Assembly (NCBI GenBank): GCA_023100825.1
Contig: CP095846.1
Coordinates: 2,418,001 to 2,482,000 of the forward strand
Direction of reading: 5' to 3'
DNA length: 64,000 nucleotides
Source: Nocardioidaceae bacterium SCSIO 66511
Lineage (GTDB): Bacteria; Actinomycetota; Actinomycetes; Propionibacteriales; Nocardioidaceae
Shown here: piece after piece, positions 14,464 to 32,254 of the stretch
How positions within the stretch are numbered: position 1 is the stretch's first letter
Layout: every line of letters starts with the position of its first letter
Notes under the pieces: generated by a model
The model's database searches: none
Seen by the model: the letters and a program-made list of their open reading frames with translations, nothing else
What the model was told of the DNA's origin: nothing
Position numbers and translations under genes: made by a program

Positions 14464-14688
14464 GCACGAATCAACGTGTGGGTCCCGGATGATCTGGCCG
14501 CCGACGCCCGGCATGCAGGCCTGAATGTCTCGGCGCTCACCCAGGCGGCGCTCTCGGCTGAACTCGCCGGGCGCGCTACCGACGCTTGGCTCGACACGTT
14601 GCGCGAACCCCGCACCAACGGCCCGTCGAACGAGGCCGTACTCGATGCAATCGACGATGCTCGCGAAGAGTTCGGAAGCAGGCGGTGA
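14461..14688 (+). CDS. Antitoxin (ribbon-helix-helix, VapB-like)
   Basis: A 75-residue protein starting MARINVWVPDDLAADAR, the beta strand and first helix of a ribbon-helix-helix fold, followed by NVSALTQAALSAELAG as second helix. The acidic tail (VLDAIDDAREEFGSRR) should wrap the toxin. It overlaps the toxin gene by GTGA. The ATG at 14461 is chosen because it starts the ribbon; an upstream in-frame GTG adds only five residues. It would neutralise the PIN toxin and repress the pair's promoter. The module is flanked by a 22-base direct repeat. Confidence 0.82.
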   Translation: MARINVWVPDDLAADARHAGLNVSALTQAALSAELAGRATDAWLDTLREPRTNGPSNEAVLDAIDDAREEFGSRR

Positions 14689-15095
14689 GCGATCATCCCG
14701 ACCGCGAGCGGGTCGTGCTCGATGCGTCTGCCCTGGTCGATCTGCTCATCGCGGCACCGAGTGCCGGTGCGATTAGAGAACGCCTCCGTGGAACACTGCT
14801 CCACGCCCCAGCACACTTCGATGCAGAGGTTCTTTCCGCACTCGGTCGGCTGCATCGAAGTGGAGACCTATCCGTCTCCGAAGTCGATCAGGCACTCGCA
14901 CACCTTTCGGCGATGCCGGTCACCCGGCATCCCATTGCGGATCTGTTGACCGGCGCTTGGGCACGACGAGACGGACTACGGCTGGTCGACGCGCTGTACG
15001 TCGAGCTGGCGGCCCGGCTCGGAGCACGACTATTGACACTTGATCAGCGGCTCGCTCGGGCCTGCCCGATCGCCGATGCGATCACCGCCCGCTAA
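14685..15095 (+). CDS. PIN-domain toxin (VapC-like ribonuclease)
   Basis: A 136-residue PIN-domain protein. The acidic metal-binding residues appear as VLDASALVDLL (first Asp), HFDAEVLSALGRL (Glu), RLVDALYVELAARLG and LLTLDQRLARA (C-terminal Asps), the VapC pattern. It should cleave RNA, typically tRNA or rRNA, when free of antitoxin. The GTG start overlaps the antitoxin stop by four bases. Its stop codon lies in the second copy of the flanking 22-base repeat. Target RNA is unknown. Confidence 0.86.
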   Translation: MSDHPDRERVVLDASALVDLLIAAPSAGAIRERLRGTLLHAPAHFDAEVLSALGRLHRSGDLSVSEVDQALAHLSAMPVTRHPIADLLTGAWARRDGLRLVDALYVELAARLGARLLTLDQRLARACPIADAITAR

Positions 15096-19972: not shown

Positions 19973-20075
19973 CTCCAGAGTTGCCTGGTACGTGTGGTCC
20001 TTGCAGCCTGAGAGGTTCCGGGGAGGAGTTGCCCCTTCGGCGCTGCGCAACGGGAGTGCAGACTCTCCCACACGT
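19973..20075 (-). ncRNA. Glycine riboswitch
   Basis: Read on the minus strand, this holds the conserved aptamer segments: GGAGAGTC, then GCGCCGAAGGGGCAA, then CCTCTCAGG, and a final CTCTGGAG. The 8-base outer stem is perfect (20068-20075 with 19990-19997). This matches the glycine-aptamer pattern, and its location ahead of gcvP is the classical one, where glycine switches on the cleavage system. I see one full aptamer; the stretch after it (to 19973) may be a vestigial second half. It begins 22 bases after the stop of the upstream merR gene. Confidence 0.93.
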
Positions 20076-20090
20076 CATCGACGGCTCTTT

Positions 20091-20105
20091 CAGGCTATCA
20101 GCCTG
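20091..20105 (-). terminator. Short hairpin at the end of the second merR gene
   Basis: CAGGCT/AGCCTG arms with a 3-base loop span the merR stop codon and are followed by AAAG on the minus strand. It may end the merR transcript or simply separate it from the riboswitch. It is weak because there is no T-run. Confidence 0.3.
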
Positions 20106-20703
20106 CGCGCTTGGCCCTCCGACGGGCGGCGAGCTCGTCACCGGCGTCTTCGCCGACCTGATCGTCGGCACGCTCACTCGGCAGCGCGGCCAGCGAACCT
20201 TCGATCTCGCGCCACACGCCGCCGATCGCGATGCCGAAGACGCCCTGACCGCCCTGGAGCAGGTCGATCACCTCGTCGGGCGAGCGGCATTCGTACACGC
20301 TCGCGCCGTCGCTCATCAAGGTGACCTCGGTGAGATCGTCGGTGCCCCGGTCGCGCAGATGAGAGACGGCCGTGCGGATCTGCTGTAGGGAGACTCCGGC
20401 GTCGAGTAGCCGCTTGATGATTTTCAGCAGCAGGATGTCGCGGAAGGAGTACAGCCGCTGGGTGCCGGATCCGCCGGCAGAGCGAACGGTCGGCTCGACA
20501 AGACCGGTGCGTGCCCAGTAGTCGAGCTGACGGTAGGTGATATCTGCCGCGTTGCATGCGGTCGGGCCACGAAAGCCCGTGTCGTCGGGCATCGGCGACA
20601 GATCGTCGTCGAATAGCAGACCCTGGTCGCCGGCGTCTTTGATCGCCTGCGCCTCACGCGCCGCATCGATCTTATGTGTCGCCTCGTCGCCGTGGTTGTT
20701 CAC
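20098..20703 (-). CDS. MerR-family regulator (Rv1830-like)
   Basis: A 201-residue MerR protein corresponding by position to mycobacterial Rv1830. The helix-turn-helix and wing are at GPTACNAADITYRQLDYWA, LVEPTVRSAGGSGTQRLY and SFRDILLLKIIKRLLDAGV (residues about 45-115), followed by a C-terminal part without ligand-binding cysteines. I chose the GTG at 20703 because GGAAGG sits seven bases before it. In Mycobacterium this gene belongs to the garA-gcvH neighbourhood and has links to growth control. A palindrome at 20836-20852 upstream matches one ahead of garA-ftsR. Confidence 0.85.
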   Translation of the reverse strand: MNNHGDEATHKIDAAREAQAIKDAGDQGLLFDDDLSPMPDDTGFRGPTACNAADITYRQLDYWARTGLVEPTVRSAGGSGTQRLYSFRDILLLKIIKRLLDAGVSLQQIRTAVSHLRDRGTDDLTEVTLMSDGASVYECRSPDEVIDLLQGGQGVFGIAIGGVWREIEGSLAALPSERADDQVGEDAGDELAARRRAKRAG

Positions 20704-20835
20704 GTACTCGCCTTCCGAAACCACAGATCACCACTGTGGAGTTACAGGGCCGATGTTCCTCATTCAAGGTAGGCCGCGCCGCCTGGCGGGTCAACGACCT
20801 GCTGGTCACACGGGCGTGTCGCGTTCACGGCAAGT

Positions 20836-20852
20836 CTCAACCTCTACTTGAG
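20836..20852. promoter_or_regulatory. Candidate MerR operator B
   Basis: CTCAACCTCTACTTGAG has symmetric ends CTCAA/TTGAG and matches the site at 22659-22675 in 13 of 17 bases. It lies between the nuclease gene and the second merR gene, 133 bases from the latter's start. MerR proteins bind such 17-20 base palindromes; which of the two MerR proteins binds here is unknown. Confidence 0.5.
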
Positions 20853-20868
20853 GGTGACCCCTGGTCGT

Positions 20869-21339
20869 TCAGGACTCCTTCTCGAAGTCCTCGGGGCTGA
20901 TCTGGTCGAGGAACTCGCGGAACTTCTCGACCTCGGCCTCTTCCTCGTCCGGAACATTCACCGAGGACTCGTCCAGCACGTCTTCGGCGCATACGATTCG
21001 CGAGCCGGTGCGCAGTGCCAGCGCGATGGCATCGGACGGTCGTGCGTCGACCTCGAGGCCGGACTCGAAGGCGAGGATCGCGTAGAAGGTGTTCTCGGTG
21101 ACCTCGGTGATGCGCACCTCGTCGAGCTCCTGATCCATCGCACCCAACAGATCGCGCATCAGGTCATGGGTCATCGGTCGCGGGGGTACGACCCCTTGCT
21201 GGGCGAACGCGATCGCGGTCGCCTCGACCGCGCCGATCCAGATCGGCAGGTAACGCGCGCCCTCGACCTCACGCAGCAGCACCAGTGGGGTGTTGGACGG
21301 CATCTCCACGCGTACACCGACTACATCGAGCTCTCGCAC
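20869..21339 (-). CDS. Bifunctional nuclease family protein (DUF151)
   Basis: A 156-residue DUF151 protein, the Rv1829 equivalent. VRELDVVGVRVEMPSNTPLV, YLPIWIGAVEATAIAFA and ARPSDAIALALRTGSRIV are the conserved blocks. Related plant and bacterial proteins have reported RNase and DNase activity, though the role in actinobacteria is not settled. The GTG at 21339 is chosen because homologs start with RELDVVGV and GGTGAG lies just upstream; another GTG is nine bases earlier. It sits between ftsR and the second merR gene as in Mycobacterium. Confidence 0.88.
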   Translation of the reverse strand: MRELDVVGVRVEMPSNTPLVLLREVEGARYLPIWIGAVEATAIAFAQQGVVPPRPMTHDLMRDLLGAMDQELDEVRITEVTENTFYAILAFESGLEVDARPSDAIALALRTGSRIVCAEDVLDESSVNVPDEEEAEVEKFREFLDQISPEDFEKES

Positions 21340-21408
21340 ACTTCTCACCCTACTCTTGCCCGGCAGACGACACACGCGGGTACGACCGACTGAGAGCTCG
21401 GGTGGATC

Positions 21409-22149
21409 TCAGTCCCGCTTCTGCAAACCGTGCTTGACGAGGGTCGTGTGCAGGCGTACCGAAAGTGCCGCCAGCTCGCGGATCGTCTCCTCCGCGCGGG
21501 CGCTCGCCGTCGGATCCCCGCGCCGGTGCTGGGTCGAAACGATCTGCTCGAACAGACCGATCTCGCGGTCTGCGGCGGTCTTGAACGCGCGCAGATGTCG
21601 TGGCTCGACTCCGTACGCGGCCAATGCCCCGACAGTCTTCGCGACCGTGAGGTCGACACCGTCGTAATGCTGATGGTTCAGCCGAGGTCGCAGCAGACCG
21701 AACTGCTCCATCGCCCCCAGCATTGCGTCGTCGATCTCGGCGGCTTCGAGCAACTCCGCGCGCGACAGCCTGATCTCGTGTCTGCTCGGACGGAATGAAT
21801 CGCCGGTCGGGTAGCCGTCGTCGGCGAGCACGATCTTGGGCACGGTCGGCGTGCCCGTGTCTTCGTTGGCCTGGCTCGGCTCCAAGCCGCGGTCCATGGC
21901 CTCGAGATTCTTACGGATCTCGCGTAGTGGGTAGAACCTGTCGCGCTGCATCGTCAGGACGTACCGCAACCGCTCGACGTCGGTTGTCGAGAACTTGCGA
22001 TACCCGGATGGGGTGCGTTCGGGTTCCACGAGCCCTTCGGACTCGAGATACCGGATCTTGGAGACCGTGATGTCCGGGAACTCCGAACGCAACTCCTGCA
22101 GCACGTCGCCGATGCTCATCCGATCGCGGGACGGCACCGCCTGGGTCAC
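21409..22149 (-). CDS. ftsR: MerR-family cell-division regulator FtsR
   Basis: A 246-residue protein with an N-terminal MerR helix-turn-helix (MSIGDVLQELRSEFPDITV, IRYLESEGLVEPERTPSGYR) and a second, similar helical domain after residue 120 (RLSRAELLEAAEIDDAML), the arrangement known for Rv1828/FtsR. The Corynebacterium homolog regulates ftsZ and cell growth. The GTG start overlaps the garA stop by four bases, so garA and ftsR are cotranscribed and coupled. The palindrome upstream of garA is a candidate autoregulatory site. Confidence 0.9.
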   Translation of the reverse strand: MTQAVPSRDRMSIGDVLQELRSEFPDITVSKIRYLESEGLVEPERTPSGYRKFSTTDVERLRYVLTMQRDRFYPLREIRKNLEAMDRGLEPSQANEDTGTPTVPKIVLADDGYPTGDSFRPSRHEIRLSRAELLEAAEIDDAMLGAMEQFGLLRPRLNHQHYDGVDLTVAKTVGALAAYGVEPRHLRAFKTAADREIGLFEQIVSTQHRRGDPTASARAEETIRELAALSVRLHTTLVKHGLQKRD

Positions 22150-22634
22150 TGCCGGGTACCGCCCTGGGTGCTCGGGTAGTACACCAGCCGGTACTTGCCG
22201 ATCTGCACCTCGTCACCGCCGGACAGCAGCACCTCGTCGATGCGGTCGCGGTTGACGTACGTGCCGTTCAGACTGCCGACGTCGGTCACGGTGAAGCCGC
22301 CACCTTGGACCCGCGAGAACACCGCGTGCCGCCTCGAGACGGTGACGTCGTCGAGGAAGATGTCGCTGTCGGGATGGCGTCCCGCCGTCACCTGGTCGGT
22401 GTCGAGCAGGAACCGTGAACCTGCGCTCGGCCCGCGCTGTACGAGGAGCAGGGCGCTGCCACCCGGGAGCGCCTCCAACGCCGTGGCGTCCTCGTCGGTC
22501 AGCTCACCCGGCTTACCCTCCAGATCCGCCCCTGTCTGAGGGATCGGAATGGTCGATGTGACCTCACTCGGTGACTCAGCGCTCGGGAACTCTGGCTCGC
22601 CAGACCCATCCCGGCCGCCGCTGCTATCAGCCAT
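22146..22634 (-). CDS. garA: FHA-domain glycogen/TCA regulator GarA (OdhI)
   Basis: A 162-residue FHA protein. A flexible N-terminus carries EVTSTIPIPQ with Thr26 and Thr28 as likely phospho-sites for PknB/PknG-type kinases. The FHA fold (about 70-155) shows AGRHPDSDIFLDD, VSRRHAVF and VGSLNGTYVN, the phospho-threonine-binding loops. Unphosphorylated GarA/OdhI inhibits 2-oxoglutarate dehydrogenase and tunes glutamate metabolism. The ATG at 22634 has GGAGGAG upstream. It is coupled to ftsR and sits next to gcvH. Confidence 0.93.
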   Translation of the reverse strand: MADSSGGRDGSGEPEFPSAESPSEVTSTIPIPQTGADLEGKPGELTDEDATALEALPGGSALLLVQRGPSAGSRFLLDTDQVTAGRHPDSDIFLDDVTVSRRHAVFSRVQGGGFTVTDVGSLNGTYVNRDRIDEVLLSGGDEVQIGKYRLVYYPSTQGGTRQ

Positions 22635-22658
22635 GGCGATCTCCTCCCGCTCCGGACT

Positions 22659-22675
22659 CTCAAGCATCACTTGAG
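22659..22675. promoter_or_regulatory. Candidate MerR operator A
   Basis: CTCAAGcatcaCTTGAG is a perfect 6-base inverted repeat with a 5-base centre, 25 bases ahead of the garA start. It shares CTCAA-n7-TTGAG with the site at 20836-20852. FtsR autoregulation is the simplest reading, untested. Confidence 0.55.
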
Positions 22676-22693
22676 GTTGATACCTAGAACCTA

Positions 22694-23071
22694 TCACTCG
22701 CCGAGTTGCGCTTCGTAGGCCTGCGCATCCATCAACCCGTCGAGGTCGTTGCTGTCTGCGAGGCGCAGCTTGATCAGCCAGCCCTCGCCGTACGCATCGC
22801 TGTTGACGACCTCCGGGCTGCTCTCCAGCAACTCGTTGCGCGCGATGACCTCGCCCGCGAGCGGAGCGAACAGATCGCTCACCGACTTCGTCGACTCCAG
22901 CTCTCCGATGACCGACCCGGGCTCCACCTGCTCGCCCGCCTCGGGCAGGGACACGTACACGATGTCACCGAGCTCGCCCTGGGCGTAGTCGGTGATGCCG
23001 ACCGTCGCGGTGTCGCCGTCGACGCGCACCCACTCGTGGTCGGAACTGTACTTGAGGTCGTCGGGGGTCAC
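22694..23071 (-). CDS. gcvH: Glycine cleavage system H-protein
   Basis: A 125-residue lipoyl carrier protein. K62 in ELESTKSVSDLFAP is the lipoylation site, and DHEWVRVDGDTATVGITDYAQ and LPEAGEQVEPGSVIGELES are typical of the family. It shuttles the aminomethyl group between GcvP and GcvT. The GTG start has GGAG five bases ahead. The gene lies between the DUF881 protein and garA, separated from gcvP by the regulator genes, the usual actinobacterial layout. Confidence 0.96.
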   Translation of the reverse strand: MTPDDLKYSSDHEWVRVDGDTATVGITDYAQGELGDIVYVSLPEAGEQVEPGSVIGELESTKSVSDLFAPLAGEVIARNELLESSPEVVNSDAYGEGWLIKLRLADSNDLDGLMDAQAYEAQLGE

Positions 23072-31174: not shown

Positions 31175-32254
31175 ATGACCACCATCCATCCCGTCCGTAC
31201 ATTCGCCGCCGTCGCCTGCACGGCGGCGCTGGTGGTCAGCGGCTGTACGAAGTCCGAGGACTCCGGCGCAGCCGATACCTCCGGCGACCCGGAAGCGGGT
31301 GCTCAGCAGGTCAAGTCAGCAGGTACGAACGGCCCCGAGTGCTCACTCGACAAGTACGGCGCGGAGAAGCTCGACTTGGCCGACGCCACGGTCGGCTTCT
31401 CCCAGTCCGAGAAGGAGGACAACCCCTTCCGAATCGCCGAGACCGAGTCGATCACCCAGTCGGCCGAAGAGGCCGGCGTCAAAGACTTCATCAAGACGAA
31501 CGCACAGACCCAGCTGTCCAAGCAGATCGCCGATATCCAGGGCATGATCTCGCAGGGCGTCGACGTGCTGATCGTCGCACCGCTCAACTCCGACGGCCTG
31601 GAGCCTGCGCTCAATGCCGCTAAGGACAAAGGCATTCCGGTCCTCACGGTCGACCGCAAGCTGAATGCCGAACCGTGCGAGGACTACATCTCCTTCCTCG
31701 GCTCCGACTTCACCGAGCAGGGCAAGCGCGCCGCCGATCAGGTCATCGAGGCGACCGACGGCAAGGCCAATGTCGCGATTCTGCTCGGCGCCTCGGGCAA
31801 CAACGTCACCACCGAGCGTACGAAGGGCTTCGTCGACCAGATCGGCGCCGAGGCACCCGAGATCGAGATCGTTGCGCAGCAGACCGGTGAGTTCGCCCGC
31901 GACAAGGGCCAGCAGGTCACCGAGCAGCTGCTGCAGTCCAACCCCGAGATCGACACCATCTACGCCGAGAACGATGAGATGGGGCTCGGTGCACTCGCCG
32001 CCATCCGCGCCGCGGGCAAGCAGCCCGGTGAGGACATCAAGATCTTCTCCGTCGACGGCACCCGCAACGCCGTCAGCGAGATCACCAAGGGCACGTACAA
32101 CGGTGTGATCGAGTCGAACCCGCGCTTCGGCCCGCTCGCGTTCGACACGCTCGAGAAGTTCTACGCCGGCGACCCGGTCACCGACGAGATCGTGATCGAG
32201 GACCGCGAGTACACCCCGGACAACGCCGAGGAGCTCCTGGACTCGGCGTACTGA
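31175..32254 (+). CDS. Sugar ABC transporter substrate-binding lipoprotein (YtfQ-like)
   Basis: A 359-residue lipoprotein with signal peptide and lipobox VVSGC (C24). The periplasmic-binding fold 4 domain shows VGFSQSEKEDNPFRIAETES, DVLIVAPLNSDGLEPAL, IPVLTVDRKL and a YAENDEMGLGALAAIRAAG block that closely resembles E. coli YtfQ, the galactofuranose receptor. It should capture a monosaccharide at the cell surface for the two permeases downstream. The stop overlaps the ATPase start by one base. Confidence 0.9.
   Translation: MTTIHPVRTFAAVACTAALVVSGCTKSEDSGAADTSGDPEAGAQQVKSAGTNGPECSLDKYGAEKLDLADATVGFSQSEKEDNPFRIAETESITQSAEEAGVKDFIKTNAQTQLSKQIADIQGMISQGVDVLIVAPLNSDGLEPALNAAKDKGIPVLTVDRKLNAEPCEDYISFLGSDFTEQGKRAADQVIEATDGKANVAILLGASGNNVTTERTKGFVDQIGAEAPEIEIVAQQTGEFARDKGQQVTEQLLQSNPEIDTIYAENDEMGLGALAAIRAAGKQPGEDIKIFSVDGTRNAVSEITKGTYNGVIESNPRFGPLAFDTLEKFYAGDPVTDEIVIEDREYTPDNAEELLDSAY

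What the first reader, a model, noticed from the sequence alone, without database searches (positions are those of the whole stretch)
20836..22675. Shared 17-bp palindrome before garA-ftsR and before the second merR gene
CTCAA-n7-TTGAG occurs at 22659-22675 and 20836-20852, each ahead of a MerR gene unit. It suggests FtsR and/or the Rv1830-like protein control both units, coupling cell growth, 2-oxoglutarate flux and the nuclease.
Basis: partly seen in the sequence, partly recalled or inferred. Interest (0 to 1): 0.5.

Follow-up and report, generated by a model that had tools for sequence, protein, structure and literature searches.

The report
FtsR operators at garA-ftsR and merR2
Two matching DNA palindromes are very probably docking sites for the cell-division regulator FtsR, placed so that it can control its own operon (shared with a metabolic switch protein) and the neighbouring second regulator gene, a circuit seen in many related bacteria.

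Summary
In detail: CTCAA-n7-TTGAG occurs twice in the window, as stated, and three times in the 4.6-Mb genome. A 25-bp FtsR site published for Corynebacterium glutamicum ftsZ ranks these two places first and second in the window, so FtsR is the likely binder. The Rv1830-like protein is unlikely: the published Rv1830 motif differs, and two genomes that kept this gene but lost ftsR lack the palindrome at merR2 and ftsZ.
In the own family (taken as Nocardioidaceae, with 21 named relatives) the merR2 site is in 49 of 50 stretches and the garA site in 42 of 51 (two genomes counted twice). In the family of a Rhodococcus the merR2 site is kept (22 of 30), the garA site not (0 of 30).
At garA the site sits just after the -10 box (inferred: self-repression). 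At merR2 it lies upstream of -35 beside a GACACG box (inferred: activation or joint control). At ftsZ it follows a conserved TTGACATAAC. The nuclease lies upstream of the second site and could be reached only through the first.
Binding and direction are untested. The motif is known; these two targets were not found in the papers searched.

The parts
22656..22678 (-). FtsR operator 1 (extended 23-mer AACCTCAAGTGATGCTTGAGAGT; core 22659-22675), in front of garA-ftsR-nuclease
   Evidence: site of score >=12/16 in 42 of 51 stretches of the own family and named relatives
20833..20855 (-). FtsR operator 2 (extended 23-mer ACCCTCAAGTAGAGGTTGAGACT; core 20836-20852), in front of merR2
   Evidence: site of score >=12/16 in 49 of 50 stretches
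22688..22696 (-). garA promoter, extended -10 (TGATAGGTT), ending 9 nt before operator 1
   Evidence: -10-like hexamer before 39 of 42 sites; transcription start inferred, not mapped
20814..20821 (-). CGACACGC box like the WhiB2 box of the mycobacterial mcdR promoter, between operator 2 and -35
   Evidence: 4 such boxes in the window, fewer than the 15.8 expected, so one box alone proves nothing; GACACG follows 43 of 49 merR2 sites, 26 of them 3 nt after the palindrome
20789..20794 (-). merR2 promoter -35 (TTGACC)
   Evidence: -35/-10 pair with 17-18 nt spacing after 49 of 49 sites versus 48 of 2000 random stretches
20766..20771 (-). merR2 promoter -10 (TACCTT), 17 nt from -35
22146..22634 (-). 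garA/odhI, FHA-domain 2-oxoglutarate dehydrogenase inhibitor
   Evidence: PF00498; NCBIfam OdhI 174.7 bits, under that model's cut-off of 200
21409..22149 (-). ftsR, MerR-family regulator, overlaps garA by 4 nt
   Evidence: NF050798 275.5 bits, cut-off 150
20869..21375 (-). bifunctional nuclease-domain protein, third gene of the garA-ftsR unit
   Evidence: PF02577; co-transcription inferred from the 33-nt gap
20098..20724 (-). merR2, second MerR regulator (positional counterpart of Rv1830 ResR/McdR); start codon uncertain
   Evidence: PF13411; gene order as described in PMC6683498

Best explanation
The two palindromes are operators for FtsR. A dimer binds ACCCTCAA-n7-TTGAGGGT. Shown by comparison: likeness to the known FtsR site, conservation at these promoters, and absence where ftsR is absent. 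Inferred: (1) at garA-ftsR-nuclease the operator lies just downstream of the -10, on the likely transcription start, so FtsR represses its own operon and GarA with it; (2) at merR2 the operator lies upstream of a normal 17-18-nt-spaced promoter and next to a GACACG box, so FtsR activates merR2, or shares its control with a WhiB/WhiA protein; (3) at ftsZ it activates, as published for C. glutamicum.
For: Published C. glutamicum FtsR 25-mer (ChAP-seq and EMSA, PMC6683498) scores 19/25 at merR2 and 17/25 at garA, first and second in the window; the best score of 30 shuffled motifs was 15 (16 motifs), 16 (12) or 17 (2). 23-mer score >=13/16 in 32 of 108 garA and 40 of 89 merR2 upstream regions across actinomycetes, 0 of 110, 0 of 95 and 0 of 92 for ftsR, nuclease and gcvH; 279 permuted half-sites average 0.23 and 0.30 (max 12 and 11); gap 7 scores highest of gaps 0-15. 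Among 61 own-family genomes, 17 of the 18 listed sites with <=1 mismatch lie within 3 kb of ftsR. ftsZ promoters: >=12/16 in 29 of 30 FtsR genomes (70 permuted half-sites average 1.36, max 14) and 9 of 9 more. Two genomes without ftsR but with garA, nuclease and merR2 score 10 around merR2 and 9 at ftsZ. Promoter geometry.
Against: No binding or expression data here. The garA site's 17/25 was equalled by 2 of 30 shuffled motifs. None of the nine C. glutamicum ChAP-seq peaks in Table 1 is at odhI-ftsR or cg1633, and the garA site is missing in the Rhodococcus family (0 of 30). In the seven loci named Streptomyces the merR2 region is at background (8-10 of 16). One genome without a detected ftsR still has a 13/16 stretch before ftsZ (G059, 90% complete). 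The two genomes that lost ftsR are probably one event. In an open count of all 5-mer palindromes CTCAA-n7 came third at merR2 (44 of 89), behind TCCTC-n15 (56) and CCTCG-n13 (45), which I did not trace, and fourth at garA, behind shifted versions of itself. Directions of control rest on geometry alone.
Confidence: 0.82

Rival explanations
1. The Rv1830-like MerR2 binds the palindromes, alone or competing with FtsR (self-control and cross-control).
For: MerR proteins bind inverted repeats; of the two window targets the merR2 site is the more widespread.
Against: Published Rv1830 motif AATnACAnnnnTGTnATT differs (PMC9040748); in the window it occurs only with 3 mismatches, at chance level and elsewhere. 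The palindrome is absent in two genomes with merR2 but no ftsR. The same motif is at ftsZ, an EMSA-supported FtsR target in C. glutamicum.
Confidence: 0.07
2. The sites are FtsR operators but act in the opposite sense at one or both: activation of garA-ftsR, repression of merR2.
For: Transcription starts were not mapped here. In C. glutamicum FtsR seems to act both ways: activation of ftsZ from an upstream site, possible repression of cop1 from one reaching past the -10 (PMC6683498).
Against: A -10-like hexamer was found before 39 of 42 garA sites and ends 9-18 nt upstream of the site in 38 of the 39; the merR2 site lies upstream of -35 in 49 of 49. These are the usual places for repression and activation.
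Confidence: 0.2
3. Chance palindromes or a structural element (terminator, hairpin) of no regulatory meaning.
For: One site follows the nuclease stop codon, where a terminator could sit.
Against: Conserved letters, not just pairing; a preferred 7-nt gap; a conserved place against promoters; absence from three other gene starts of the same loci.
Confidence: 0.01

Closest known systems
FtsR site of the ftsZ promoter (C. glutamicum FtsR / Rv1828; PMC6683498: sections 11 and 14 and passages seen)
   Same: Same 25-bp inverted repeat (19/25 and 17/25 identical), FtsR ortholog beside it, own ftsZ promoter carries a copy too.
   Different: Targets here are garA-ftsR and merR2, which are not among the nine tabulated ChAP-seq peaks; both sites match the 23-mer slightly better (14/16) than the ftsZ site of the same genome (13/16).
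McdR(ResR)-WhiB2 loop of mycobacteria (PMC9040748: passages and sections 8 and 10 seen)
   Same: The merR2 promoter here has a cGACACGc box upstream of the -10, as the mcdR promoter does.
   Different: An FtsR operator sits close beside it; the McdR motif itself is not at these promoters.
SoxR and HspR (HAIR) sites of other MerR-family proteins (recalled, no call)
   Same: CTCAA/TTGAG half-sites, MerR-family dimers.
   Different: As recalled, SoxR has a 6-nt gap and HspR has the half-sites in the opposite order.

Membership tests
FtsR operator | Match to the published FtsR 25-mer better than chance | tested here: met
   19/25 and 17/25, ranks 1 and 2 in the window; best of 30 shuffled motifs 15-17, two of them 17
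FtsR operator | FtsR ortholog in the genome | tested here: met
   NF050798 275.5 bits over cut-off 150
FtsR operator | Absent where ftsR is absent | tested here: met
   G096 and G126: merR2 region best 10/16, ftsZ best 9/16; G027, G054, G124: ftsZ 9, 9, 11; exception G059 with 13; G166 had no ftsZ match
FtsR operator | Bound by FtsR protein | not testable with these tools
   No binding data for this lineage
ResR/McdR (Rv1830) operator | AATnACAnnnnTGTnATT at the site | tested here: not met
   Nearest matches in the window have 3 mismatches, at 32093, 54751 and 55191; 3 found, 2.26 expected
Classical MerR promoter | Operator inside a 19-20 bp spacer between -35 and -10 | tested here: not met
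   merR2: operator upstream of a promoter with 17-18 nt spacing in 49 of 49; garA: downstream of the -10 hexamer where one was found, 39 of 42
FtsR family (protein) | NCBIfam equivalog cut-off | tested here: met
   Rv1828 chain 5YDC matched over residues 125-242

The most novel reading that the evidence does not exclude
FtsR is the hub of a small, old division-control circuit: it represses its own operon together with the 2-oxoglutarate switch GarA, drives ftsZ, and drives the second regulator (ResR/McdR type) from a site set beside a WhiB/WhiA-type box, so that metabolic state, FtsZ level and the ResR-WhiB2 loop are set by one protein. The link to the second regulator is wider than the self-control, which comes and goes between families.
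Probability: 0.5. Interest if true: 0.65.

Novelty: new member of a known kind. Interest (0 to 1): 0.5.

Why it matters
FtsR (Rv1828) is called essential in the title of Singh 2018 (seen only in a reference list) and activates ftsZ in C. glutamicum, but how FtsR itself is controlled, and how it relates to the neighbouring regulator ResR/McdR, I found in none of the papers seen. Conserved operators at both make a direct test possible and suggest a physical link between FtsR, GarA and the ResR-WhiB2 division loop. They might also explain the conserved 'region_1' of the mycobacterial mcdR promoter, whose deletion had no effect on WhiB2 activation (PMC9040748); I did not see that sequence, and no named Mycobacterium was examined.

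Tried and rejected
MerR2 as the binder: rejected on its published motif and on the two ftsR-less genomes. Chance: rejected by shuffles, permuted half-sites and control regions. FtsR spacer-type activation at merR2: rejected because the -35/-10 spacing there is 17-18. Spacer activation at ftsZ stays open: in many of the aligned promoters a GAGGGT-like stretch lies 19 nt after TTGACA (by eye), but no transcription start is known. A wider FtsR regulon in this genome: the 13 sites with <=3 mismatches are not far above the control of 8. In 12 genomes, 21 sites have <=2 mismatches (reversed control 10); by coordinates 16 of the 21 are the garA or merR2 sites. Rv1830-type motif elsewhere in the genome: 9 sites with <=2 mismatches against 3 in the control, none before an ORF that I recognised by eye as whiB2; the motif of MerR2 in this lineage stays unknown. 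A search of viral contigs for FtsR found no relative.

Rows dropped or unequal: L068 left out of the garA count (stretch unusable); L236 has no usable garA start and counts as a miss; L214 has no merR2 in its stretch; L084 (a Nocardioides) was not put into the set; L051/L219 and L048/L220 are the same stretches twice; L182 is the Rhodococcus L114 again.

Full report
Observation. The window holds exactly two copies of CTCAA-n7-TTGAG, at the stated places, with none in 100 shuffles. The genome has three; the third lies inside a reading frame that looks like a permease. On the minus strand, the direction of the genes, the sites read CAACCTCAAGTGATGCTTGAGAGTC before garA and CACCCTCAAGTAGAGGTTGAGACTT before merR2. 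The genes are, in order, gcvH, garA, ftsR (NF050798), a bifunctional nuclease, merR2, a glycine riboswitch and gcvP. The second site lies after the nuclease gene and precedes only merR2.

Which protein. In C. glutamicum, FtsR binds AACCCTAAAGTAAAGGTTGAGGGTA in the ftsZ promoter in vivo and in vitro (PMC6683498; sections 11 and 14 seen). Used as it stands, that sequence ranks the two window sites first and second among all positions on both strands (19/25 and 17/25; best of each of 30 shuffled motifs 15-17, two of them 17). This test does not depend on a motif derived here. This genome's own ftsZ promoter carries a copy (13/16 of the 23-mer; the window sites have 14/16) and shares CACCCTCAAGTAGAGG with the merR2 site. 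The published motif of the Rv1830 protein is AATnACAnnnnTGTnATT (PMC9040748), which is unlike it.

Conservation. I collected 110 loci: the window, 29 unnamed and 80 named genomes. The 23-mer scores at least 13 of 16 in 32 of 108 garA and 40 of 89 merR2 upstream regions, and in 0 of 110, 0 of 95 and 0 of 92 upstream regions of ftsR, the nuclease and gcvH. All 279 permutations of the half-site average 0.23 and 0.30 (max 12 and 11). Gap 7 gives the highest mean of gaps 0-15; the next are 13 at garA and 1 at merR2. In an open count of 5-mer palindromes CTCAA-n7 ranked fourth at garA, behind shifted versions of itself, and third at merR2, behind two others that I did not trace.

By family. For one search I took the window, the 29 own-family loci and 21 named relatives. 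Sites of at least 12/16 are in 49 of 50 merR2 and 42 of 51 garA stretches; without the two duplicated genomes, 47 of 48 and 40 of 49. In the family of the Rhodococcus L114 the merR2 site is in 22 of 30 and the garA site in 0 of 30. In the seven loci named Streptomyces it is the reverse: garA 12-14 in six of seven (the seventh 10), merR2 8-10. In the twelve loci named Amycolatopsis, Prauserella, Thermocrispum, Herbihabitans, Crossiella and Actinokineospora, garA is at background (8-10) and merR2 11-13 in ten (9 in the other two).

Specificity. Across 61 own-family genomes, the listed sites with at most one mismatch lie within 3 kb of ftsR in 17 of 18 cases; with two mismatches, 27 of 57 do (the listing was cut). 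Of the 31 distant ones I looked at nine: three are ftsZ promoters (L260, L261, L265) and two, in one genus, precede a gene that I read as an NlpC/P60-type hydrolase (L266, L267) (identified by eye).

ftsZ. Thirty genomes were asked for ftsZ and 29 gave it; with the own genome that makes 30 promoters, of which 29 score at least 12/16 and 16 at least 13 (70 permuted half-sites average 1.36 for >=12, max 14).

Joint loss. Two genomes of the Rhodococcus family (G096, G126) have gcvH, garA, nuclease, merR2 and gcvP in order but no ftsR between garA and the nuclease (read by eye from the translations). There the best score upstream of the nuclease and downstream of it, merR2 region included, is 10/16, and at ftsZ 9/16. 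Nine FtsR-bearing genomes of the same family score 12-14 at ftsZ. Other genomes without a detected ftsR score 9 (G027), 9 (G054) and 11 (G124); G166 gave no ftsZ; one (G059, 90% complete, 100 contigs) scores 13, against the rule unless its ftsR is merely missing from the assembly. G096 and G126 probably share one loss. merR2 being present while the motif is absent argues that merR2 is not the binder.

Promoter anatomy and mechanism. merR2: palindrome, then GACACG in 43 of 49 (26 of them 3 nt after it), then a -35/-10 pair with 17-18 nt spacing in 49 of 49, against 48 of 2000 random stretches. GACACG matches the box through which WhiB2 activates mycobacterial mcdR; in this window the single box CGACACGC is not rare (4 found, 15.8 expected), so its weight comes from conservation. 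garA: a TA[GA][GT]TT hexamer before 39 of 42 sites, most often ending 12-13 nt upstream, so the site covers the likely start of transcription. ftsZ: TTGACATAAC upstream of ftsZ in 28 of 30, just before the site. From these places I infer repression at garA, activation or joint control at merR2, and activation at ftsZ; only the last is published. The spacer mechanism of classical MerR proteins (review PMC9909328, passages) does not fit merR2 or garA.

Literature. Searches for FtsR, Rv1828, Rv1830, ResR, McdR, garA, odhI and the motif letters (listings seen, several of them capped) showed no report of FtsR sites at garA-ftsR or at the second merR gene. The library is open-access only. The Rv1828 paper of Singh 2018, the ChIP-seq data sets and the supplements were not seen, so a report there cannot be excluded.

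Verdict. It is a new pair of targets for a known regulator with a known motif, with good evidence for FtsR as the binder and weaker, geometric evidence for the direction of control. On recheck I lowered the main confidence from 0.83 to 0.82 and raised that of the MerR2 rival from 0.06 to 0.07, because the garA score alone is within reach of shuffled motifs.

Noticed in passing
window 19985-20080 (-): Glycine riboswitch (RF00504, 64.2 bits) between merR2 and gcvP, so gcvP probably has its own control behind merR2.
   Followed up: no
L047/L012 and ftsZ loci L137-L164: TTGACATAAC with nearly fixed following sequence is kept in 28 of 30 ftsZ promoters; the FtsR site there allows two overlapping registers.
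   Followed up: partly
garA promoters of L216-L219, L224 and others (not in the window): An extra CAACC-n-TC half-repeat stands just before the garA operator in many relatives; possible second contact.
   Followed up: no
L266, L267: FtsR-like site (2 mismatches) before a coiled-coil gene read by eye as NlpC/P60-type in two genomes of one genus; possible further division target.
   Followed up: partly
L128, L130, L134 (own genome): Rv1830-type motif AATnACAnnnnTGTnATT (1-2 mismatches) beside an oriC-like stretch, a possible peptidoglycan hydrolase gene and an nrdR-like gene (identified by eye).
   Followed up: partly
G096, G126 (L257, L256): Natural absence of ftsR from inside the conserved garA-ftsR-nuclease-merR2 cluster.
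   Followed up: yes
window 14586-15095 (+): ORF that looks like a PIN-domain (VapC-type) protein; no family search was made.
   Followed up: no
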